Source: a virus. From it: a DNA stretch of 37,510 nt. Positions 1 through 37,510 of this stretch are shown one piece after another; the stretch's first letter is position 1; the number at the start of each line of letters is the position of its first letter. The notes below the pieces were generated by a model that was not told the DNA's origin, made no database searches, and saw nothing but the letters and a program-made list of their open reading frames with translations. The DNA lies in IMG/VR virus record IMGVR_UViG_3300033571_004674, positions 1 to 37,510 of that record; one strand, 5' to 3'. The translations under genes were made by a program, and so were the position numbers.

Positions 1-87
1 GACACCCTTCTTACGAGCAAGTTTGTTGCGTAGAGGAGTTGGTCGAGGGGTTAGGAGCTTTGACGGAGCCTCAAGATCGAAGGCCGC
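1..87. repeat. Terminal direct repeat, left copy
   Basis: These 87 bases are identical to the last 87 bases of the window (37424-37510). The repeat lies inside the major capsid coding sequence, and overlaying the two copies restores a single open frame. It is therefore best read as the assembly overlap of a circular contig. The odd length of 87 would fit a k-mer overlap. A genuine physical terminal repeat is less likely because it would interrupt the capsid gene. Confidence 0.95.
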
Positions 88-5728: not shown

Positions 5729-7087
5729 CTATCCTAACGGCGTATGGCAAGTAGGGCAAAGTTTAGCGGTCTTAGGAGCCGGCATACGACACGACGGACA
5801 GAACTGAGCGAGGGCCGCTATACCTAGCATAGAGGATCCTCCCTCCATCAGATCAGTCATAGCCCATACGAGAGCGTCAAGTCGATCCGGTGAAAAGTCT
5901 GAGTCCGGAGTATAGTTACACATTTGATCCTCAAGAGCGGGGAACGATCCTAAGTGGTGAGCTCGACCTTGCTCGTAGATCGACGCGATCGGCTCAGCTC
6001 TCAAGATCTTTCCGCGAGTGGCGGTCACTTTCTTATAGCTGATTGTCGGATCAACTTGACGGAGTAAAGCCTCGATCATATCTCCGCCGTTATTCGTCTC
6101 ACCAATGATCCGATCGGCTTGGTGGCGGTGATAAGCCTCAACCGCGACGCGAGCCCAAGAGTCCGGTGAGGATCTCCGAGTCAGATCCTCGAGTATGTAG
6201 TAATGTCCGTCAGCGGTCATACCGGCGACTACGATACCGGTCTCGTCGCTTTTCTCTCCGGAGGTCGTCGCCGGATCGATAGCTACTACGACTCTGACGA
6301 GTGGCGGGTGATCAGTGACTCGAGTCTCGTCAAGTTGAGCGAGAGTCCAAAGAGCTCCATCGACCTCGTCTATGATCTCTCCGTAAAGCTCTTGACGACC
6401 TAGACGCGTTCCCTCGTATCTGAGTTTGAGATCTGCTAGAGCGGTCTGAGCGAGGTTCTGAGCGTTATCGAAGGTTGATCCTCGAGTCACGGCTACGGAT
6501 CCGTCAGCTCGAGTCGCAAGAGATCTGATCAGTGAGGTAGGTCGAGGCGTGGTAGTGACGATTACTCGCGGGTGATCTCCGAGACGGAGTCCGAACTGTA
6601 ACTGATCCCAAGCGTCAGTGTAGCGATAGGCCGCTAACTCGTCGCACCAAGCTCCGTGATGTTGAGGACCTCTAAAGCGGTCAGGTTTATCAGCTGAGAA
6701 AAGCTTGATCCTTGATCCGTTGATCAGAAGGATCTCACCAATCGACCGGTTGTAATCTTTGAGAGCTTTATACCGGCGGAGAACATTGAGGATCCCGCTC
6801 TCACCTTCGGCACAGGTATCTCGAGCGTCAGCGTAAGTTGGAGCTACGATCGCCCAACGCGTATTAGGTTGAGAGATCGCTTGATCGGCAAGCCACTCGG
6901 CCGCAGTCCTCGTCTTACCCGCTCCTCGACCGGCGAGGTAAAGCCAAACTGACCAATCAGAGTCCGGAGGTAGTTGCTCCGGTCTCGCTTGCTCCACTCT
7001 CCAACGATAACGGCTTGCTCTGATCCACTTCGTCGAGGAGTCTAATGATCCGCTCGATGTCGTTGTTGTAGTCGAAATTGCCGTCAT
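5729..7087 (-). CDS. terL: Terminase large subunit with C-terminal zinc ribbon
   Basis: The protein has 452 residues. The ATPase half has Walker A at 52-60 (AGRGAGKTR), preceded by the family stretch ARPEQLPPDSDW, and Walker B at 145-150 (GAWCDE). The nuclease half shows VVAIDPATTSG (Asp271) and DRLDALVWAM (Asp404). It is the packaging motor and headful/site nuclease. Unusually, the C-terminus ends in two CxxC pairs (C430, C433, C444, C447; FCPSCRMPAP... LCPTCHTP), a predicted zinc ribbon. The ATG at 7087 follows GGAGG by 9 nt, and the first 131 nt overlap the small subunit gene in another frame. The conserved ARPEQLPP motif lies inside that overlap, so at least part of it is genuinely dual coding. 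Confidence 0.93.
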   Translation of the reverse strand: MTAISTTTTTSSGSLDSSTKWIRASRYRWRVEQARPEQLPPDSDWSVWLYLAGRGAGKTRTAAEWLADQAISQPNTRWAIVAPTYADARDTCAEGESGILNVLRRYKALKDYNRSIGEILLINGSRIKLFSADKPDRFRGPQHHGAWCDELAAYRYTDAWDQLQFGLRLGDHPRVIVTTTPRPTSLIRSLATRADGSVAVTRGSTFDNAQNLAQTALADLKLRYEGTRLGRQELYGEIIDEVDGALWTLAQLDETRVTDHPPLVRVVVAIDPATTSGEKSDETGIVVAGMTADGHYYILEDLTRRSSPDSWARVAVEAYHRHQADRIIGETNNGGDMIEALLRQVDPTISYKKVTATRGKILRAEPIASIYEQGRAHHLGSFPALEDQMCNYTPDSDFSPDRLDALVWAMTDLMEGGSSMLGIAALAQFCPSCRMPAPKTAKLCPTCHTPLG

Positions 7088-7448
7088 AAGTCATTACCTC
7101 CGCTTGAACTTTCTGAGGAGCCTCAAGTCCGAGTAACTTAGCTCTCCTATCCATAACCTTTAGAACTACCTCAGCTGATCTCTTATCAAGATCAACAATC
7201 GCGGGTTTCCAATAAGCTCTTTGAATCCGATCAAGTCGATCAAGCTCAAGATCTCGGATCTGATCAACTGAGTCACGCTGAACCCTCTTGACCACTCTCA
7301 TATAGGCTTTCTGAGCTCCGGAGGCGTTAGCGTAGCCGACCACTTGAGCGATCCGCTCCCAAGTTTCTCCGGATCTCCTCAGCTCGAGGACTTTGTTCTC
7401 TTTATCGAACTGATCCGGCGGGACTGACTTTGATCTCTTTGTCGCCAT
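6957..7448 (-). CDS. terS: Terminase small subunit
   Basis: The protein has 163 residues and starts at an ATG 7 nt after AGGA. The N-terminal region is a helix-turn-helix DNA-binding type: VLELRRSGETWERIAQVVGY and GAQKAYMRVVKRV. A helical central part (QIRDLELDRLDRIQRAYWKP, VMDRRAKLLGLEAP) is typical of small terminase oligomers that recognise the packaging site. The C-terminal 43 codons overlap terL in another frame, ending in a Ser/Gly/Thr-rich tail (LESGASETGATTSGL). Identification rests on these features and direct adjacency to terL. Confidence 0.85.
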   Translation of the reverse strand: MATKRSKSVPPDQFDKENKVLELRRSGETWERIAQVVGYANASGAQKAYMRVVKRVQRDSVDQIRDLELDRLDRIQRAYWKPAIVDLDKRSAEVVLKVMDRRAKLLGLEAPQKVQAEVMTYDGNFDYNNDIERIIRLLDEVDQSKPLSLESGASETGATTSGL

Positions 7449-7464
7449 ATGGTTATCCTACTTT

Positions 7465-7995
7465 CTAGGATAAATAGTATCGTATTTGATCGGCGAGGGT
7501 TTGAGGGGATAAGGATCCGTCAAGTTTGATCGCTCCGTGTCGCTCCGCGAGGTTGAGGTGTTTAGTTTGGCGACCTTTGAGCCAAGATAGGTTTTGAGCG
7601 GGGAGGTTGTGAGCTCGAGATCTGAGGATCCGTCTTGTTTGAGCTTCGACCGGATCTGTGTTGAGGTGAAAGATCAGTGTTTCTCCGTGATCTTGAGCGA
7701 TCTTGATAAAGCGATCATTGGCGAGGCGATCTCCCTCAGCGATTACGAGTCCTTCGATCCCTTCTTGATACCATTGAGCGACTTGAGTTATGACGGCTTG
7801 AGGGAGTGAGTCTGTTCCGCCGAAAGGTGCTCGAGTCCAACCTAGTTGGATAGCGGGTCCGTAGGGAGTTTTGTAGGTTATATGTTTGATCGGGTTGATC
7901 TCTCGCGTCAGCTCAGTCCAAGAGTCCGTGAGCTCTTTGATCAGAGTTGTTTTGCCGGCACCCGGCTCACCTATTAGGATCAGTGTTTTTGTCAT
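7465..7995 (-). CDS. P-loop kinase-like protein
   Basis: The protein has 176 residues. Walker A is at residues 9-17 (GEPGAGKTT), directly after a short beta strand, and IEGLVIAEGDRLAND resembles the core and lid regions of small nucleotide kinases. It has an Arg-rich segment (RRILRSRAHN). The ATG overlaps the stop of the upstream gene (ATGA). Small P-loop kinases accompany TET/JBP dioxygenases and ParB-like proteins in phage DNA hypermodification clusters, where some phosphorylate hydroxymethyl bases. Its position beside those two genes makes that role plausible. A nucleotide kinase or a terminase-associated ATPase is the alternative. Confidence 0.7.
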   Translation of the reverse strand: MTKTLILIGEPGAGKTTLIKELTDSWTELTREINPIKHITYKTPYGPAIQLGWTRAPFGGTDSLPQAVITQVAQWYQEGIEGLVIAEGDRLANDRFIKIAQDHGETLIFHLNTDPVEAQTRRILRSRAHNLPAQNLSWLKGRQTKHLNLAERHGAIKLDGSLSPQTLADQIRYYLS

Positions 7996-8198
7996 TTGTG
8001 TCTTTCGTCAGGTTGAAATCCGAAGGATCTTTCGGGTAAGGGATCAGTTGAGGCGATCTCTGAGGTTCCGCTGACTGAGGCGATAAAGTCCGGTCGCGGT
8101 TGGCATTTGTGATCTTTCCGCCACTCTCGTAAAAGTCTCAGCTCGTCTTTCCGCTCAGCTTGAAAAGAGGATCCGCAAGAGCAAGATTCGCTGATCAT
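7992..8198 (-). CDS. Small Cys-containing protein
   Basis: The protein has 68 residues. Its N-terminus SESCSCGSSFQAERKDELRLL and the later WRKDHKCQP give Cys-x-Cys, a Trp-Arg pair and His-x-Cys. This arrangement is seen in many small actinophage proteins and probably forms a tiny zinc finger. The C-terminal third is low in structure (SGTSEIASTDPLPERS). No strong ribosome site is visible near the ATG at 8198; a GGAG lies 17 nt upstream. It lies between the dioxygenase and kinase genes, but no function can be given. Confidence 0.65.
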   Translation of the reverse strand: MISESCSCGSSFQAERKDELRLLREWRKDHKCQPRPDFIASVSGTSEIASTDPLPERSFGFQPDERHK

Positions 8199-8219
8199 TG
8201 GATAGATCAGTGACTCCTG

Positions 8220-9089
8220 TTATTTGCTGATCTTTGAGGTGCCGGTTTTCAGATCGTCAGCGATACCGATCTCTCTTGAGGTCCGTGACTCTTTAGCTTT
8301 AGCGGTCTCAACGGCGTAGGTAAAGCAGTCTTTCATACCTCGTAGAGCGTAATAGACGACTGTGTAGCGGTAAGCGTCAGCGGTCTTAGGGCTCATTGGT
8401 GTAACTCCGTGAACATACTTGTAGCCGGGAAAGAAACTTACCCAACCATCTCGAGCTGAGAAAGTAAAGTCATATTCGGGGAAGTGTAGATATCCTCCCG
8501 CCATTGAGCGACGGATCACCGGCATAGCTGACCAAGTTTGAAAGTTGAAGCCGTCTCTGTGGTAAGGGAGGGTTGAGCTTTTATTGACTACTCCGGAGGT
8601 CCAAAGAGCGTCGTCAGTCATTTTCCACTCGTTCGAGATCCCTGAGTTGTCCATTGTCGCTTGATCCTGTTCGTAAAGATCCGGAGCAAAGTCTTTGAAC
8701 ATTTTCGCGAACTTTTCAGCGAAGGCGATCAGAACGGCGTGTTCGTCAGGTTGCTCGACCGCGAGCATAGTTGGTCGGCAAGACTCTCGTCTCTGAGTGA
8801 TCTTTCGAGGAGCCATACCGAAGGTCCGAGAGATATTGCGGTTACCGGTCGCTTGACGAGTTGTTCCGACTTGATATCTGATATTGAGGATCGAGGCTCT
8901 GAGCTTATCGACCTCCTCAGTCATAGGGAAGCAAGCAAAGATCGGTTCCTCAGTTTCGTCGTCGATCCAAAGTCCCTCAGCGTGTTCGGTAGGCTCAACC
9001 TCCGGCACGATCGTTCCTACGAGCTCAGTTGCCTCGTCAGCCGTCATAACTCTTTTGATCCGGTAGATCGGTAGATCAGATAGTTTCAT
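8220..9089 (-). CDS. TET/JBP-like 2-oxoglutarate Fe(II) dioxygenase
   Basis: The protein has 289 residues. The iron-binding set is visible: His177 and Asp179 in STLPYHRDGFNF, then His227 in YKYVHGVTP. Arg241 in AYRYTVVYYALRGM fits 2-oxoglutarate binding. The surrounding pattern (WSAMPVIRR, GGYLHFPEYDF, DGWVSFFPG) matches phage TET/JBP-type enzymes, which oxidise 5-methylpyrimidines in DNA. An N-terminal part with TFGMAPRK and CRPTMLAVEQP also fits that family. Its ATG at 9089 overlaps the end of the ParB-like gene by 14 nt, so the two are co-translated. Whether the substrate is thymine or 5-methylcytosine cannot be read from the sequence. Confidence 0.78.
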   Translation of the reverse strand: MKLSDLPIYRIKRVMTADEATELVGTIVPEVEPTEHAEGLWIDDETEEPIFACFPMTEEVDKLRASILNIRYQVGTTRQATGNRNISRTFGMAPRKITQRRESCRPTMLAVEQPDEHAVLIAFAEKFAKMFKDFAPDLYEQDQATMDNSGISNEWKMTDDALWTSGVVNKSSTLPYHRDGFNFQTWSAMPVIRRSMAGGYLHFPEYDFTFSARDGWVSFFPGYKYVHGVTPMSPKTADAYRYTVVYYALRGMKDCFTYAVETAKAKESRTSREIGIADDLKTGTSKISK

Positions 9090-9744
9090 TTGGAGCCTTC
9101 TCTCCGGAGGCTTGCTCGATCAAGTGGATCACCGCGTCAGCGTTAGACGCGATCGAGTGTTTCTCCCTGTAAGCGATCATCTTTTCCATAAGCCAAATAT
9201 ACACATTGTTAGGATAATCAGCGATCAGCATACGCGTTGCCTTCTGATTGTAACGCTCAGCGTAATCCTTGAGGGTAGGTTGCTGATAGGTGCCGTTTTG
9301 ACCGGTCTCTCCGACCTCTACGACTGAGATATTGCCGGAGATCTTAGGAGTTTGAGCCTCTTGGAGCAAAGCTGAGAGATCATCAAGATCAGAGGAGTCG
9401 TAACCGGTTCCCTCAAGATCAGGGAGCTCAGTCAATAACCTCAATAAAGCTGTATTATCAAAGTCTCCGAGCTCTTGAGACCGGTTATCCATAGCTACGA
9501 TCTTGACGGCGGTTTCATCATCAACATCAACATAGACGACATCGATCTCAGTCCAACCAAGACTTTTGGCCGCTAAATAAGTGTGATTACCCGCGAGGAT
9601 CTGACCATCAAGCTTGACTGTGATCGGCTTGTATTGACCATAAAGCTCAAGTGATTCAGCGATCAGATCGACATTACCTTTTCTCGGATTTCCGGGAAAC
9701 TGTTTCAGCTGATCAAGCTTGACGGACTCGACTTTGAGCGACAT
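9076..9744 (-). CDS. ParB-like nuclease-domain protein
   Basis: The protein has 222 residues. The ParB-N fold is clear: VKLDQLKQFPGNPRKGN, ESLELYGQYKPITV, then GQILAGNHTYLAAKSLGWTE, where GNHTYLAA replaces the usual GERR-type motif. It is followed by VVYVDVDDETAVKIVAMDN, normal for phage ParB/Srx proteins that sit next to DNA methylases or modification genes. The C-terminal half is helical and unassigned. The ribosome site is strong (GAGGAGGAGTA before the ATG). A DNA- or nucleotide-binding helper for the adjacent dioxygenase is inferred from context; partitioning is unlikely because no ParA is present. Confidence 0.8.
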   Translation of the reverse strand: MSLKVESVKLDQLKQFPGNPRKGNVDLIAESLELYGQYKPITVKLDGQILAGNHTYLAAKSLGWTEIDVVYVDVDDETAVKIVAMDNRSQELGDFDNTALLRLLTELPDLEGTGYDSSDLDDLSALLQEAQTPKISGNISVVEVGETGQNGTYQQPTLKDYAERYNQKATRMLIADYPNNVYIWLMEKMIAYREKHSIASNADAVIHLIEQASGEKAPNETI

Positions 9745-10686: not shown

Positions 10687-11090
10687 TTTATTATCCTTAT
10701 TATTGTTCCCGGCTCTCCCGGTGCGTATCTTTTCTCTGCGTTGATCTCGACAACTTGACTGTCGTCGATCCAAACTGATTTTGACTGAGTGACTCCGTCG
10801 AGTGCGGCCCGGATCAGCTTATCCAAGTCGGGTTTCGTGACCGGATCCGCTCGTCGAGCTGATTTAGGTTTGCTGATCAGAAAGAGGATCTCGACTCTGA
10901 CCGGTTGATCCTTACCCGCGAGATCCCAACCGGATCTTTTAGCCTCGATCTGAGCGTGTAGAGAGACTTGAGATCTCCACTCTTTTAGACCTTTAGCTGA
11001 CTCGACTAATACGATCTTTGATCCTCGACGATAAGCGTTCTTTGATCCTTGAGGTCTCGGAGCTCCGGGCACGATCACTTCGAGGATCAT
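10647..11090 (-). CDS. rusA: RusA-like Holliday junction resolvase
   Basis: The protein has 147 residues and starts MILEVIVPGAPRPQGS. The RusA catalytic pattern is present: TKPDLDKLIRAALDG, followed by WIDDSQVVEINAEKRY. It resolves Holliday junctions or branched DNA before packaging. The ATG overlaps the NlpC/P60 stop (CAATGA), and GAGGGG gives a good ribosome site. The 3' end overlaps whiB by 40 nt. Together with RecT, the Cas4-like nuclease and SSB it makes up a recombination-based replication set. Confidence 0.88.
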   Translation of the reverse strand: MILEVIVPGAPRPQGSKNAYRRGSKIVLVESAKGLKEWRSQVSLHAQIEAKRSGWDLAGKDQPVRVEILFLISKPKSARRADPVTKPDLDKLIRAALDGVTQSKSVWIDDSQVVEINAEKRYAPGEPGTIIRIIKWDKTNTVNPSRS

Positions 11091-11653
11091 TGTTTCCCCT
11101 CGCAGTTCCATATCGCTTGAGCCTCAGTCCTAAAGTTGTCCCAACAGTTCAAGCTTGGTCTTACATAACGGATCTGAGCTCTTTTGTAGTTTGATAACGG
11201 CTCAATAAGAGTAGTTCCGTAATAGCGGTTAGCGTTGATCACTTTGCCGTTACCTATGTAAAGAGCTGAGTGATAAAAGTCTGAGCGACCTTGATAAGCG
11301 AATACGACGATGTCGCCAAGTTTCGGCTTACTGATCCTTTTCCCGATATGACCTTGCTCGTTCGCTGAGTGAGGTAAAGCGATCCCTAGTTGCTCGTAAG
11401 CCCAAGTGACGAGACCTGAGCAATCCCAACCTCGAGGTGAGTCTCCGGAGGGAACATAAGAGGTTTTACCGATATAAGATCTGAGCTTATGTATGACGGC
11501 TTTCATCTTGTTTTGCTCGATCAGTCTCAGGAAAGGATCCGTTACCTGAGTTTGAGTTTCTTGAGCTTGAGCTTGATCCGGTTGATTGACCGGAGCTGAT
11601 CCTAAAGCGATACTGAGGATCACGGCGACAGCTGAGATCTTGACGGCTTTCAT
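11087..11653 (-). CDS. Secreted NlpC/P60 peptidoglycan hydrolase
   Basis: The protein has 188 residues. It begins with a signal peptide (MKAVKISAVAVILSIALGSA), then a short Gln-rich linker. The NlpC/P60 domain runs from about 50: Cys78 in GWDCSGLVTWAYEQLG, His128 in DFYHSALYIGNGKVI and Asn140 as a possible third residue. Such enzymes cut stem peptides in the wall. The ribosome site GAGGAG is ideal. It is odd that a secreted lysin lies among recombination and regulatory genes, far from the late lysis block. It may act at a different stage, for example wall remodelling or exclusion, or as a second endolysin. Confidence 0.88.
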   Translation of the reverse strand: MKAVKISAVAVILSIALGSAPVNQPDQAQAQETQTQVTDPFLRLIEQNKMKAVIHKLRSYIGKTSYVPSGDSPRGWDCSGLVTWAYEQLGIALPHSANEQGHIGKRISKPKLGDIVVFAYQGRSDFYHSALYIGNGKVINANRYYGTTLIEPLSNYKRAQIRYVRPSLNCWDNFRTEAQAIWNCEGKQ

Positions 11654-11675
11654 AAGTCTCCTCGTCTTTGAGTAA

Positions 11676-11756
11676 TCATTTATTTATGATCTCTAAGAGT
11701 ATAAAGATCAAGAGGATCGCTGAGAGACTGACGAAAGATAGAGTGTCGAGGTTCAT
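11676..11756 (-). CDS. 26-residue membrane peptide
   Basis: The ORF encodes MNLDTLSFVSLSAILLIFIL plus LEIINK. Almost the whole peptide is one hydrophobic helix. The ATG at 11756 overlaps the stop of the upstream gene (ATGA), the coupling used throughout this genome, and the NlpC/P60 gene begins 22 nt later. It might be a tiny pinholin-like or regulatory membrane peptide that works with the hydrolase. It is too short to recognise by family. Confidence 0.5.
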   Translation of the reverse strand: MNLDTLSFVSLSAILLIFILLEIINK

Positions 11757-11929
11757 TTGTGACCGGATCCTTTACATTTACCGCAAGGATCAGATCCTCC
11801 GTCAGTCTCGCCGGATCCTTGACACTGATCGCAATCTTGACAGTTGAGACACGCCTCGAGGCAACTTGAGCAAGCCTCGTCAAAGATCTCACAGGATCGG
11901 CAACCGCAACTGATCTGAGTCTCGCTCAT
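11753..11929 (-). CDS. Cys-rich DnaJ-type zinc finger protein
   Basis: The protein has 58 residues, 11 of them Cys. It ends in two DnaJ-like CxxCxGxG units (CDQCQGSG and CGKCKGSGHK), preceded by closely spaced Cys (SCGCRSCEIF, CSSCLEACLNCQDC). It should bind two or more zinc ions. There is no J domain. The start overlaps the previous stop (TAATG) and the end overlaps the next start (ATGA). Its role may be protein binding or redox; this is inference. Confidence 0.65.
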   Translation of the reverse strand: MSETQISCGCRSCEIFDEACSSCLEACLNCQDCDQCQGSGETDGGSDPCGKCKGSGHK

Positions 11930-12075
11930 TAGCGACCGGCTTTCTCAGAGTCGAGGATCAGCTTACGCTTGACCGGATCCCACTTGAGCGGGCGTTTCTT
12001 GAACGCTTTTCCGTTTGGTCGATCAGCTCCGGAGCTTTTCTTGACCGGAGCTTGATTATTGTTTCTTTTACCCAT
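11929..12075 (-). CDS. Small basic protein
   Basis: The protein has 48 residues and starts MGKRNNNQAPVKKSSGADRP. It is rich in Lys and Arg, with WDPVKRKLILDSEKAGR at the end. Its ATG overlaps the methyltransferase stop (TAATG), and AAAGG is nearby. It has no membrane segment or Cys. The composition suggests nucleic-acid binding, perhaps as a partner of the methyltransferase, but the family is unknown to me. Confidence 0.55.
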   Translation of the reverse strand: MGKRNNNQAPVKKSSGADRPNGKAFKKRPLKWDPVKRKLILDSEKAGR

Positions 12076-13094
12076 TAGTTACCTTTCCTAAAAGTGAGTA
12101 TCGGCTCGTATTTGAGACCTCCGTTACGGATCGAGCTAAGTCCGTATTGAAGTGTTGGTAGCTCCTCGAAGCCAAGCTCAAGAGCGATCCTCTGAGTATC
12201 AGCAACAAGATTAGGGTGCTCTTTGACATTAGCGACATTGAGAGCGAGGATCCCGCGAGATCTGAGACCGGTTCGGCAGTTGATCAGAGTTTTACGGAGA
12301 AAGTTATCGTTCCAAGAGATCACAGAGTCGTAGCGGAGATAACTTTGAGCTGAGTCAGAGCTGTATTTCTCGCGACTGAAATAAGGTGGCGAGGTGAAAC
12401 AAAGATCAAGTGAGTTCGGATCCGGCTCAAAGTCCTCAGATCCGCTCTTGATCAGCTCAACCGCTTTACCTTTGATCCTCCACTCGTCACGGATCCGCTC
12501 AAGTCCGTTGAAGGTCTCAGTCGAGGGATCAGTCCCTATGTAAGATCGAGCGTCGCTAGTCAAGTAACCAAAGAGGCGACCGCCAAAGCCGGAGCTCATA
12601 TCCCATACATCTTTGACCTCGTCAAAGTAGTTGTAGATCGCTTTAGCGGCCGTAGGTCTAAAGTTACTGACCCGCTGAACTCCGGAGTAGGTCCGAATAG
12701 CCTTTCGCATTGACGCAGGAGTGATTGTTATCTGATCCCCGATAATGTTGTAGCCTCCCCATTTGAGCCGGCTTGCGACCGCTTTGCGTAATAACTGATC
12801 ATCGTTCCAAACATCAACCGGAGTCAGCATACGACCGGTCCGGATCTGCCAATGGTGAGGAAAGTAATGCCAACAAAGTCCCATAGCTTGTAGAGTCTGT
12901 TTGATCTTGCCGTCACTGATCAGAGATCCGGTGTCGTAGTTGAGGATCTGATTGAACTCTTTTTGTCGCTGAGCTTGACTGAGGTCGTAATGCGGGAAAC
13001 CTCGAGCTCGCCAATCAAGGAATACTGCCTCTATAATCGCGTCTTTCGTCTCAGCTGAGGCGGTCGCGTAATCGGAGGCGGTGACTCTGATCAT
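12075..13094 (-). CDS. DNA amino-methyltransferase (TSPPY type)
   Basis: The protein has 339 residues. The SAM-binding motif is VWDMSSGFGGRL (165-173), followed by YIGTDPST. The catalytic motif is CFTSPPYF (234-239), as in enzymes that methylate N4-cytosine or N6-adenine. Motif I precedes motif IV. The first 150 residues (WHYFPHHWQIR, WGGYNII) are likely the target-recognition or accessory part. No restriction endonuclease is next to it, so it is an orphan methylase, probably protecting phage DNA. Its ATG overlaps the nuclease stop (TAATG). The target sequence is unknown; the extreme GATC density of the genome makes GATC worth testing. Confidence 0.82.
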   Translation of the reverse strand: MIRVTASDYATASAETKDAIIEAVFLDWRARGFPHYDLSQAQRQKEFNQILNYDTGSLISDGKIKQTLQAMGLCWHYFPHHWQIRTGRMLTPVDVWNDDQLLRKAVASRLKWGGYNIIGDQITITPASMRKAIRTYSGVQRVSNFRPTAAKAIYNYFDEVKDVWDMSSGFGGRLFGYLTSDARSYIGTDPSTETFNGLERIRDEWRIKGKAVELIKSGSEDFEPDPNSLDLCFTSPPYFSREKYSSDSAQSYLRYDSVISWNDNFLRKTLINCRTGLRSRGILALNVANVKEHPNLVADTQRIALELGFEELPTLQYGLSSIRNGGLKYEPILTFRKGN

Positions 13095-36166: not shown

Positions 36167-37510
36167 CTAAGCGGACTTGATACCGCTTACTACTGCGTTC
36201 CAAGCCGGAGCGTAACCAACGAATCCACCACGCCAATAGGTAGAGAACTCGTAGTTGAACTGAGTGACCGGCCACTGAATACCCATATAGTCCTGAACAT
36301 TGACTACTGACCAAACATCAGAGACCTCAGTATCAGGGATAGGTAGTGTGTAAGACAAGACCGGAGCGACACCCTGCGGTAGCCAAGGATGAACGCTCAA
36401 GTTTACAAGCTTACCTGTGATCTCATTGTGGAGACCTCCGATCACCGCTCCGCCGACATAGTTACCCATATCGTCTTGAGTTAGGTTGAGGCGGTAGTTA
36501 GCAGTTGATCCGTTCTTGATCGCGTCGCTTAGTTGCTTGCGGTCAGATCCGTTCAGCCAAATCTCGTCAGGATCAGCTTTTACGCTGTCGTAAAGAGTGC
36601 CGAATACTGATTGGAACTCAGCTCCCGGATTCGAGGTGCTGAACTGAGAGTTGATCTCATTTACAGTTCCTCCGGCGAAAATCTGAGGCAGAATTCCGTC
36701 GTAACCGGTTGCGTAAGCTGAGGTGTCAGCTGTCGGAGCGGTAACAGTTGAGGTGGTCGAATAAACGATGTTATCGTTTGTGGTCGGACCGCCGGCTCCG
36801 TTGATCACTGCTGATAGAGAAGTGAAACGACCCTGATACTTCGCGTTAGCGTTACCGGTTGTAGTTCCAATATAAACCTTTGATCCAAGAGATCCGGAGA
36901 CATTGTTAACTGTTACGGTAAGGACCTGACCTGATGTGATCGCTTGAGACTGAACTGTCGATGAAACTGATTCACCGAAAGATCCTGCGTCAGAAGTTAC
37001 ATACACATAGTAGGTTGTGGCCGCCATCGCAACTTCACCGGTGGCCGCAGTGCGAGCACCTAGAGTCACTGTCGGGGCCGCAAGAGCTCCGCTCAAACCT
37101 GACGCGGTTCCTCTGCTCATAAGAAGCATACGCTCCTCCATAAGCATAGACGCGTAAAGAGTTGAGGTTGAGCTCAGCTGACGGAGATCCTGATAACCCA
37201 TACCTGAGAAGTTAGCGTCAAAGCTGACCGCGTCGCTTAGTGAGTATGAGAAGTAAGGGAACACAACATCGTCAGCGGTGTAGCTGATCTTTGGACCACG
37301 CTCAAAGTTGATCGAGCCGAAAGCGGTTGTTGTGTTTTCAGTGATACCCGGCCAAACCTGACCCTGACCGCCGGTTCCGGTACCGGTGTAACCGGTGATC
37401 CTCTTGATACGGTGGCTTGTGCCGACACCCTTCTTACGAGCAAGTTTGTTGCGTAGAGGAGTTGGTCGAGGGGTTAGGAGCTTTGACGGAGCCTCAAGAT
37501 CGAAGGCCGC
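36167..37510 (-). CDS. Major capsid protein, C-terminal part (continues from 384)
   Basis: This is the larger part of the 546-residue capsid protein; bases 37424-37510 repeat positions 1-87. From the junction it reads GTSHRIKRITGYTGTGTGGQ, then ERGPKISYTADDVVFPYFSY and SLSDAVSFDANFSGMGYQDL. The apparent GTG start at 37264 is internal. The HK97-type layout (arm, long helix near LRQLSSTSTLYASMLMEERM, beta insert with Thr/Ala repeats) is present, and QVSVHPWLPQG-like and WPVTQFNYEFSTYWRG segments close the protein. A beta domain in the middle (TAATGEVAMAATTYYVYVTS) may be an exposed insert of the Ig type. The TAG at 36167 ends it. Confidence 0.88.
   Translation of the reverse strand, partial: AAFDLEAPSKLLTPRPTPLRNKLARKKGVGTSHRIKRITGYTGTGTGGQGQVWPGITENTTTAFGSINFERGPKISYTADDVVFPYFSYSLSDAVSFDANFSGMGYQDLRQLSSTSTLYASMLMEERMLLMSRGTASGLSGALAAPTVTLGARTAATGEVAMAATTYYVYVTSDAGSFGESVSSTVQSQAITSGQVLTVTVNNVSGSLGSKVYIGTTTGNANAKYQGRFTSLSAVINGAGGPTTNDNIVYSTTSTVTAPTADTSAYATGYDGILPQIFAGGTVNEINSQFSTSNPGAEFQSVFGTLYDSVKADPDEIWLNGSDRKQLSDAIKNGSTANYRLNLTQDDMGNYVGGAVIGGLHNEITGKLVNLSVHPWLPQGVAPVLSYTLPIPDTEVSDVWSVVNVQDYMGIQWPVTQFNYEFSTYWRGGFVGYAPAWNAVVSGIKSA
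37424..37510. repeat. Terminal direct repeat, right copy
   Basis: This stretch is identical to positions 1-87 and shows that the contig closes on itself. Coding sequence in it belongs to the major capsid gene and should be counted once. Confidence 0.95.

What the first reader, a model, noticed from the sequence alone, without database searches (positions are those of the whole stretch)
7465..9744. Candidate DNA hypermodification cassette: ParB-like, TET/JBP-like dioxygenase, P-loop kinase
Three consecutive co-translated genes encode a ParB-like protein, a dioxygenase with HRD/H/R residues of the TET/JBP type and a small P-loop kinase, with one small Cys protein between. Phage TET/JBP enzymes oxidise 5-methylpyrimidines, and P-loop kinases are known to act on hydroxymethyl-uracil in phage DNA (established families). 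The combination suggests oxidised and then phosphorylated or further decorated bases. No glycosyltransferase or pyrophosphorylase is seen, so the pathway would be a short or variant one (inference).
Basis: partly seen in the sequence, partly recalled or inferred. Interest (0 to 1): 0.78.

Follow-up and report, generated by a model that had tools for sequence, protein, structure and literature searches.

The report
Minimal phage DNA-base oxidation-plus-kinase cassette
This small phage genome carries a stripped-down gene set predicted to oxidise thymine in its own DNA and then attach a phosphate, a short version of a known phage trick for hiding DNA from bacterial defences; the short version recurs in at least five phage lineages and could be tested directly in phages already in culture.

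Summary
Window 7465-9744 (- strand) encodes a ParB-like protein, a TET/JBP-type dioxygenase with all catalytic residues, a small Cys protein and a P-loop kinase, just upstream of terminase. An exact 87-base end repeat shows the 37,423-b genome is complete, so missing genes are informative: no C5-methyltransferase, dUMP hydroxymethylase, amino acid:DNA transferase (AADT) or glycosyltransferase was found. In 80 related viral contigs the order ParB-TET-[module]-TerS-TerL is nearly constant and the module swaps: kinase+AADT with or without a FAD or PLP-like enzyme, TET-associated glycosyltransferase, two unidentified modules, or kinase alone. Of 65 loci with a full interval, 25 have kinase+AADT, 5 kinase only, none AADT without kinase. 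The closest relatives carry AADT and a FAD enzyme at this spot; the window most likely lost them. Best reading: a TET-initiated thymidine hypermodification pathway stopped after oxidation and phosphorylation (T to 5hmU to phospho-5hmU). TET substrate, kinase substrate and end product are inferred. Main caveat: the same kinase family sits beside terminase in hundreds of mycobacteriophages, most without TET. TET-kinase-AADT phages are already described (Tonitrus); the recurrent kinase-only form is the new part.

The parts
9076..9744 (-). ParB-like (ParB N-terminal fold) protein, 222 aa; proposed DNA-binding or targeting partner
   Evidence: phrog_723 1.5e-45; Pfam ParB_N 7.3e-5, just below its cut-off; also matches the ParB domain of phage DNA methyltransferases, phrog_498 1.8e-27; directly upstream of TET in nearly all relatives
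8220..9089 (-). TET/JBP-type Fe(II)/2-oxoglutarate dioxygenase, 289 aa; proposed thymine C5-methyl hydroxylase acting on DNA
   Evidence: Tet_JBP 1.3e-7, phrog_6059 1.4e-77; H177-x-D179, H227, R241 invariant in 44 homologues; model closest to TET2 Z 18.0
7992..8198 (-). 68-aa Cys protein (CxC...HxC), function unknown
   Evidence: found only in the closest relatives L005-L007 at the same place, 48-53% identical, Cys6, Cys8, His30 and Cys32 kept
7465..7995 (-). P-loop kinase (Ploopntkinase3 family), 176 aa; proposed kinase of 5-hydroxymethyl-dU in DNA
   Evidence: PF18751 1.8e-21, phrog_800 6.9e-17; M6 gp54 (Pfam 5-hmdU DNA kinase) falls in the same PHROG; model pLDDT 94, nucleoside/nucleotide kinase folds as best matches
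8199..8219 (-). TET/Cys68 junction where the closest relatives carry an amino acid:DNA transferase and a FAD enzyme (about 1.7 kb); absent here
   Evidence: L005 AADT 10861-11766, FAD 11763-12578; no match in the window
6957..7448 (-). Probable small terminase (separate gene, so the kinase is not needed as TerS here)
   Evidence: phrog_645 (labelled RNase E) 2.1e-33; position directly before TerL in the relatives
5729..7087 (-). Large terminase
   Evidence: Terminase_6N 8.5e-26, Terminase_6C 2.4e-17
1..87 (.). Terminal direct repeat, identical to 37424-37510: complete, circularly permuted genome
   Evidence: exact 87-base match
37424..37510 (.). Second copy of the terminal direct repeat

Best explanation
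The locus is a TET-initiated thymidine hypermodification module of a phage that probably infects an actinobacterium, reduced to its first two chemical steps. (1) The ParB-like protein targets the enzymes to phage DNA (inferred). (2) The TET/JBP enzyme hydroxylates the C5-methyl of thymine in replicated DNA, giving 5hmU in place of a dUMP-hydroxymethylase route (family shown, substrate inferred). (3) The kinase phosphorylates the hydroxymethyl group (family resemblance shown, substrate inferred). (4) In relatives the phosphate is then replaced by an amino acid (AADT) that is trimmed by FAD or PLP-like enzymes; here those genes are missing from a complete genome, so phospho-5hmU is the predicted end product, and its bulk and charge would block host restriction enzymes.
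For: Profiles, catalytic residues and fold. Complete genome by end repeat with no AADT, C5-MTase or dUMP hydroxymethylase and no glycosyltransferase match. TET phages with AADT+kinase (Tonitrus, CaiB) lack thymidylate synthase/dUMP hydroxymethylase, while M6 with kinase+AADT has it, so TET takes its place as 5hmU source. Nearly constant ParB-TET-[module]-TerS-TerL order with module swapping. Kinase and AADT co-occur: 25 both, 5 kinase only, 0 AADT only, 35 neither. Kinase-only form needs at least 5 separate changes on the TET tree, and the kinase is under purifying selection (dN 0.21, dS 1.6 against L005). Phosphorylating 5hmdU alone is known to make DNA resist more Type II enzymes (PMC7653180).
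Against: The kinase's best family (PF18751) has no tested member known to me, and its family occurs next to TerL in mycobacteriophages without TET; 374 phage records have the kinase and only 93 the TET. Tet_JBP score of the window protein is slightly below Pfam's cut-off. A conserved Asn (N182) sits where TET2 has its cytosine-contacting Asn, so a 5mC substrate is not excluded. An unrecognised gene or a host enzyme could finish the modification. The Fisher test ignores shared ancestry.
Confidence: 0.5

Rival explanations
1. The kinase belongs to the packaging machinery, not to base modification: a P-loop enzyme coupled to terminase that happens to lie next to a TET that makes 5hmU as the final base.
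For: 374 phage records have this kinase but only 93 have TET; in Oline, Knocker and AlanGrant it lies directly before TerL with no TET; PHROG 800 is labelled terminase small subunit.
Against: 35 of 65 TET loci with terminase lack the kinase; window and Kharcho have a separate TerS; kinase presence tracks AADT presence; the PHROG label also covers M6 gp54, the Pfam 5-hmdU DNA kinase, so the label is unsafe.
Confidence: 0.2
2. As in the best explanation, but the phosphate is only an intermediate: an unrecognised phage gene (for example Cys68 or another unannotated ORF) or a host enzyme replaces it with a further group.
For: Many small ORFs of the window have no family; AADT follows TET in 25 of 30 kinase loci.
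Against: No AADT, FAD-enzyme or glycosyltransferase homologue in the complete genome; kinase-only architecture recurs in at least five lineages; Cys68 is absent from most of them.
Confidence: 0.2
3. The TET acts on 5-methylcytosine made by the host, and the pathway is a 5hmC one.
For: Metagenomic phage TETs have been reported to act in cytosine hypermodification (Burke et al. 2021, from memory; paper not held); N182 sits at the spacing of TET2 Asn1387.
Against: No C5-MTase in the window or in the isolates Tonitrus, Kozie, Nigel, Kharcho, CaiB; AADT is a thymidine-pathway enzyme; the NgTet1/TET2 His that reads N3 of 5mC (PMC7854593) aligns with an invariant Leu (L249) here.
Confidence: 0.07
4. 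A decaying remnant: the pathway was broken by loss of AADT and the remaining genes do nothing.
For: Closest relatives carry AADT+FAD at the exact junction; the window lies in a clade where the longer form is common.
Against: TET and kinase are intact with all active-site residues and dN/dS about 0.1; kinase-only form recurs.
Confidence: 0.03

Closest known systems
Proposed thymidine hypermodification cluster of Rhodococcus phage Tonitrus (PMC11955845)
   Same: ParB-like, TET (47% identity), kinase (37%), same gene order near terminase
   Different: Tonitrus also has an AADT (annotated aGPT-Pplase2; PF18724) and a further oxidoreductase-like gene; the window has neither
Thymidine hypermodification pathway of Pseudomonas phage M6 (5hmdU DNA kinase, AADT and later tailoring enzymes)
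   Same: Kinase of the same PHROG; logic hydroxymethyl, then phosphate, then decoration
   Different: M6 makes 5hmdU through a thymidylate-synthase homologue before replication; the window uses TET and lacks AADT and all later enzymes
Mycobacteriophage Nigel and Arthrobacter phage Kharcho genes beside terminase
   Same: ParB-TET-kinase with no AADT, next to terminase: the same kinase-only architecture
   Different: TETs only distantly alike (Nigel 42% identical, Kharcho on a long branch); no Cys68; not described as a modification system in their records
TET plus TET-associated glycosyltransferase (TAGT, PF20691) phage systems
   Same: Same TET family; TAGT occupies the same slot in relatives
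   Different: Window has no glycosyltransferase; uses the kinase branch

Membership tests
TET/JBP dioxygenases | HxD...H iron triad and 2OG-binding Arg in a double-stranded beta-helix | tested here: met
   H177/D179/H227/R241 invariant in 44 sequences; model residues 1-252 align to TET2, Z 18.0 over 237 residues
TET/JBP dioxygenases | Score above Pfam Tet_JBP curated cut-off (34.9 bits) | tested here: inconclusive
   Window 31.5 bits, E 1.3e-7; relatives L046 and L049 score 35.4 and 35.3 bits, above it
TET/JBP dioxygenases | Oxidises 5-methylpyrimidine in DNA | not testable with these tools
   needs enzyme assay or nucleoside LC-MS
5-hmdU DNA kinase (Pfam HMUDK_HMUD1, PF18748) | Match to the family profile | tested here: not met
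   Window kinase matches PF18751 Ploopntkinase3 (1.8e-21); PF18748 is not among the 25 families shown, down to E 0.07. M6 gp54 does match PF18748
5-hmdU DNA kinase (Pfam HMUDK_HMUD1, PF18748) | Detectable relationship to a member (M6 gp54) | tested here: met
   Both in phrog_800; profile-sequence alignment over 143 columns, probability 88, E 2.9e-6
M6/ViI-type thymidine hypermodification pathway | dUMP hydroxymethylase (thymidylate synthase homologue) | tested here: not met
   PF00303 absent from the window, present in M6
M6/ViI-type thymidine hypermodification pathway | Amino acid:DNA transferase (PF18724) | tested here: not met
   No match in the complete window genome; present in the closest relatives
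TET + TAGT glycosylation system | TET-associated glycosyltransferase (PF20691 family) | tested here: not met
   tblastn of the relatives' TAGT-like proteins finds nothing in the window
TET-associated C5-MTase (5hmC) system | C5-cytosine methyltransferase in the genome | tested here: not met
   PF00145 absent from the window
Terminase small subunit (PHROG 800 label for the kinase) | Acts as TerS; no other TerS gene | tested here: not met
   Separate TerS-position gene 6957-7448 between kinase and TerL

The most novel reading that the evidence does not exclude
A natural DNA modification whose finished base is phosphorylated (5-phosphomethyl-dU) and which is installed by only two enzymes, TET and a kinase; it would have arisen at least five times by trimming or swapping the module between TET and terminase.
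Probability: 0.35. Interest if true: 0.65.

Novelty: new variant of a known kind. Interest (0 to 1): 0.45.

Why it matters
If true, phages use a base phosphate itself as the anti-restriction mark, with just a dioxygenase and a kinase, which would give a simple two-enzyme route to charged bases in DNA. The locus also shows one fixed slot (between TET and terminase) where phages exchange amino-acid and sugar chemistries. It suggests that two widely propagated labels are misleading: phrog_6059 'queuine tRNA-ribosyltransferase' covers a TET family, and phrog_800 'terminase small subunit' covers a kinase family that includes M6's 5hmdU DNA kinase.

Tried and rejected
PDB sequence search with single proteins gave nothing for TET and only weak P-loop matches for the kinase; the TET profile found NgTet1 only weakly (0.029) plus a chance match to a de novo protein. 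PDB profile searches of two module families (A3/F8, A4/F4) and the TAGT-like family found nothing; Pfam identified only TAGT; the PLP-type reading of family 6 rests on a weak ACC-deaminase match, E 0.03. Idea that the window's lone SPPY-type methyltransferase explains its GATC excess: contigs with homologues are not GATC-rich. Idea that modification at TC protects GATC: relatives with kinase modules often have no GATC at all, so dropped. Iyer 2013, Burke 2021 and Lee 2022 were not held (an id guessed for Iyer 2013 was another paper); statements about them are from memory. Megablast of 25 kb found no phage record. The genome-contig scan gave two loci, in an Actinomycetota MAG and a Corynebacterium, both with AADT+kinase.

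Full report
WHAT IS THERE. The window is a virus record with every major gene on the - strand. Positions 1-87 are repeated exactly at 37424-37510, the mark of a complete, circularly permuted genome of 37,423 b. Genes include WhiB, RecT, RusA, SSB, terminase, portal and siphophage tail genes. WhiB, and a 71% identical TET on a contig of an Actinomycetota MAG, suggest an actinobacterial host (inference). No known phage record matches a 25-kb stretch of it by megablast.

THE DIOXYGENASE. Pfam Tet_JBP matches at E 1.3e-7, slightly under its cut-off, and phrog_6059 at 1.4e-77. H177, D179, H227 and R241 are invariant in 44 homologues. The AlphaFold model (pLDDT 79.9) is closest to human TET2 (Z 18.0), NgTet1 (16.4), CMD1 (16.3) and CcTet (15.1); FTO and ALKBH come lower (about 13.5) and PHD2, a prolyl hydroxylase, at 13.2. 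The His of NgTet1/TET2 that reads N3 of 5mC (PMC7854593) aligns with Leu249, invariant here. N182, three residues after the HxD Asp, is at the spacing of TET2 Asn1387. Residues alone do not settle the substrate.

WHICH BASE. No C5-methyltransferase is present in the window or in the complete isolates Tonitrus, Kozie, Nigel, Kharcho and CaiB. Tonitrus, Kozie and CaiB have an amino acid:DNA transferase, an enzyme of the thymidine pathway. Of these, Tonitrus and CaiB lack the thymidylate-synthase homologue by which M6 makes 5hmdU (Kozie was not tested). The simplest reading is that TET makes 5hmU from T in DNA (inference).

THE KINASE. Best family is Ploopntkinase3, PF18751 (1.8e-21), not the 5-hmdU DNA kinase family PF18748 that M6 gp54 matches. 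Both fall in phrog_800, and a profile of this kinase family aligns to M6 gp54 along 143 columns (probability 88, E 2.9e-6). The model is confident (pLDDT 94.3) and resembles adenylate, dTMP, deoxyadenosine, uridine and shikimate kinases. It works like a 5hmdU DNA kinase by inference; formal membership of PF18748 is not met.

THE NEIGHBOURHOOD IN RELATIVES. 80 viral contigs encode relatives of the dioxygenase. ParB lies upstream and TerS-TerL downstream with few exceptions. The interval between TET and TerS is a swap site: kinase+AADT+FAD enzyme; kinase+AADT+a PLP-like enzyme (weak ACC-deaminase match); kinase+AADT; TAGT, the Pfam TET-Associated Glycosyltransferase (8 of 10 members scanned, best 1.6e-8); two unidentified modules F4 and F8; or kinase alone. 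AADT identity: PF18724, 2.8e-22. Among 65 loci with a complete interval, 25 have kinase and AADT, 5 kinase only, 35 neither, none AADT without kinase (Fisher 2e-13, which ignores shared ancestry). On the TET tree the module label needs 31 changes, and kinase-only needs at least 5: window; the L045/L046/L049 group; L054; Nigel; Kharcho. Near-identical TETs carry different modules (L008 TAGT against L009 F8; L053 F8 against L054 kinase).

THE WINDOW'S OWN CASE. The closest relatives, L005-L007 (78% TET identity), share Cys68 and carry AADT and a FAD enzyme exactly between TET and Cys68. In the window that junction is 21 nt, and no homologue exists elsewhere in the genome. Loss in the window is the simpler history. 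Kinase and TET remain under purifying selection (dN/dS about 0.1 against L005; the pairwise path cannot date the loss).

HOW IT MOST LIKELY WORKS. T to 5hmU by TET, then 5hmU to phospho-5hmU by the kinase, stopping there. That such a short path would be useful has direct precedent: treating 5hmU-containing SP8 DNA with 5hmdU DNA kinase, converting about 20% of the 5hmU, added resistance to NcoI, NlaIII, PvuII and others and partial resistance to MboI (PMC7653180). The ParB-like domain resembles those fused to phage DNA methyltransferases (phrog_498), which fits a DNA-targeting role (inference).

THE MAIN DOUBT. The same kinase family is found in 374 phage records, mostly mycobacteriophages, while only 93 records have the TET. 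In Oline, Knocker and AlanGrant it sits right before TerL with no TET and no thymidylate synthase homologue. Either those kinases have another substrate or the family has a packaging-linked role. Against a purely packaging role in this group: more than half of the TET loci with terminase have no kinase, and the window has its own TerS gene.

WHAT IS KNOWN. A TET-kinase-AADT-ParB cluster was proposed as a thymidine hypermodification system in Rhodococcus phage Tonitrus (PMC11955845). Gene-cluster prediction goes back to Iyer et al. 2013 (cited in PMC6449724; original not held). So the system is a known kind. The kinase-only form as a recurrent end state, and the fixed swap slot, are the additions here; I know of no report of them, but several key papers could not be read.

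Noticed in passing
window 1-37510: Extreme short-motif bias: ACGT, CATG, GCGC and TGCA are absent, GTAC 2, TTAA 5, CCAG/CTGG 1, and GAAGA/TCTTC 1 against about 193 expected, as if many restriction sites had been purged; relatives avoid other palindromes (many have no GATC, AGCT or ACGT).
   Followed up: partly
window 1-37510: GATC occurs 896 times, 6.1 times the composition expectation, in all flanking contexts and reading frames (Asp before C-starting codons is GAT 232 to GAC 15). No other locus fetched of 8 kb or more exceeds 3.3 times. Unexplained.
   Followed up: partly
window 12075-13094: Lone SPPY-motif DNA methyltransferase-like protein, not found in the TET relatives; only three viral homologues, none GATC-rich.
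   Followed up: yes
L009:1526-2506, L028:2117-3043, L028:3040-3486: Two unidentified decoration modules (F8; F4 with a small partner that weakly resembles HAD hydrolases) occupy the slot between TET and terminase. F8 and F4 carry motifs reminiscent of GT-B glycosyltransferases, but no profile confirms it.
   Followed up: partly
PHROG labels phrog_6059, phrog_800, phrog_645: PHROG labels look wrong or unsafe: phrog_6059 'queuine tRNA-ribosyltransferase' covers this TET family, phrog_800 'terminase small subunit' covers kinases including M6 gp54, phrog_645 'RNase E' covers the TerS-position gene. RefSeq phage records carry the first two labels.
   Followed up: partly
window 5729-7087: The large terminase ends in a short zinc-ribbon-like tail (CPSC...CPTC) beyond its nuclease domain.
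   Followed up: no
L103 (Corynebacterium sp. 13CS0277): A ParB-TET-AADT-kinase set with a TerS-like gene lies in a 139-kb contig of a Corynebacterium genome, probably a prophage.
   Followed up: no
L099 (Mycobacterium phage Indlovu): TET followed by genes annotated glycosyltransferase and glucosaminyl deacetylase, then the kinase: a mixed slot in which sugar genes and kinase coexist.
   Followed up: no
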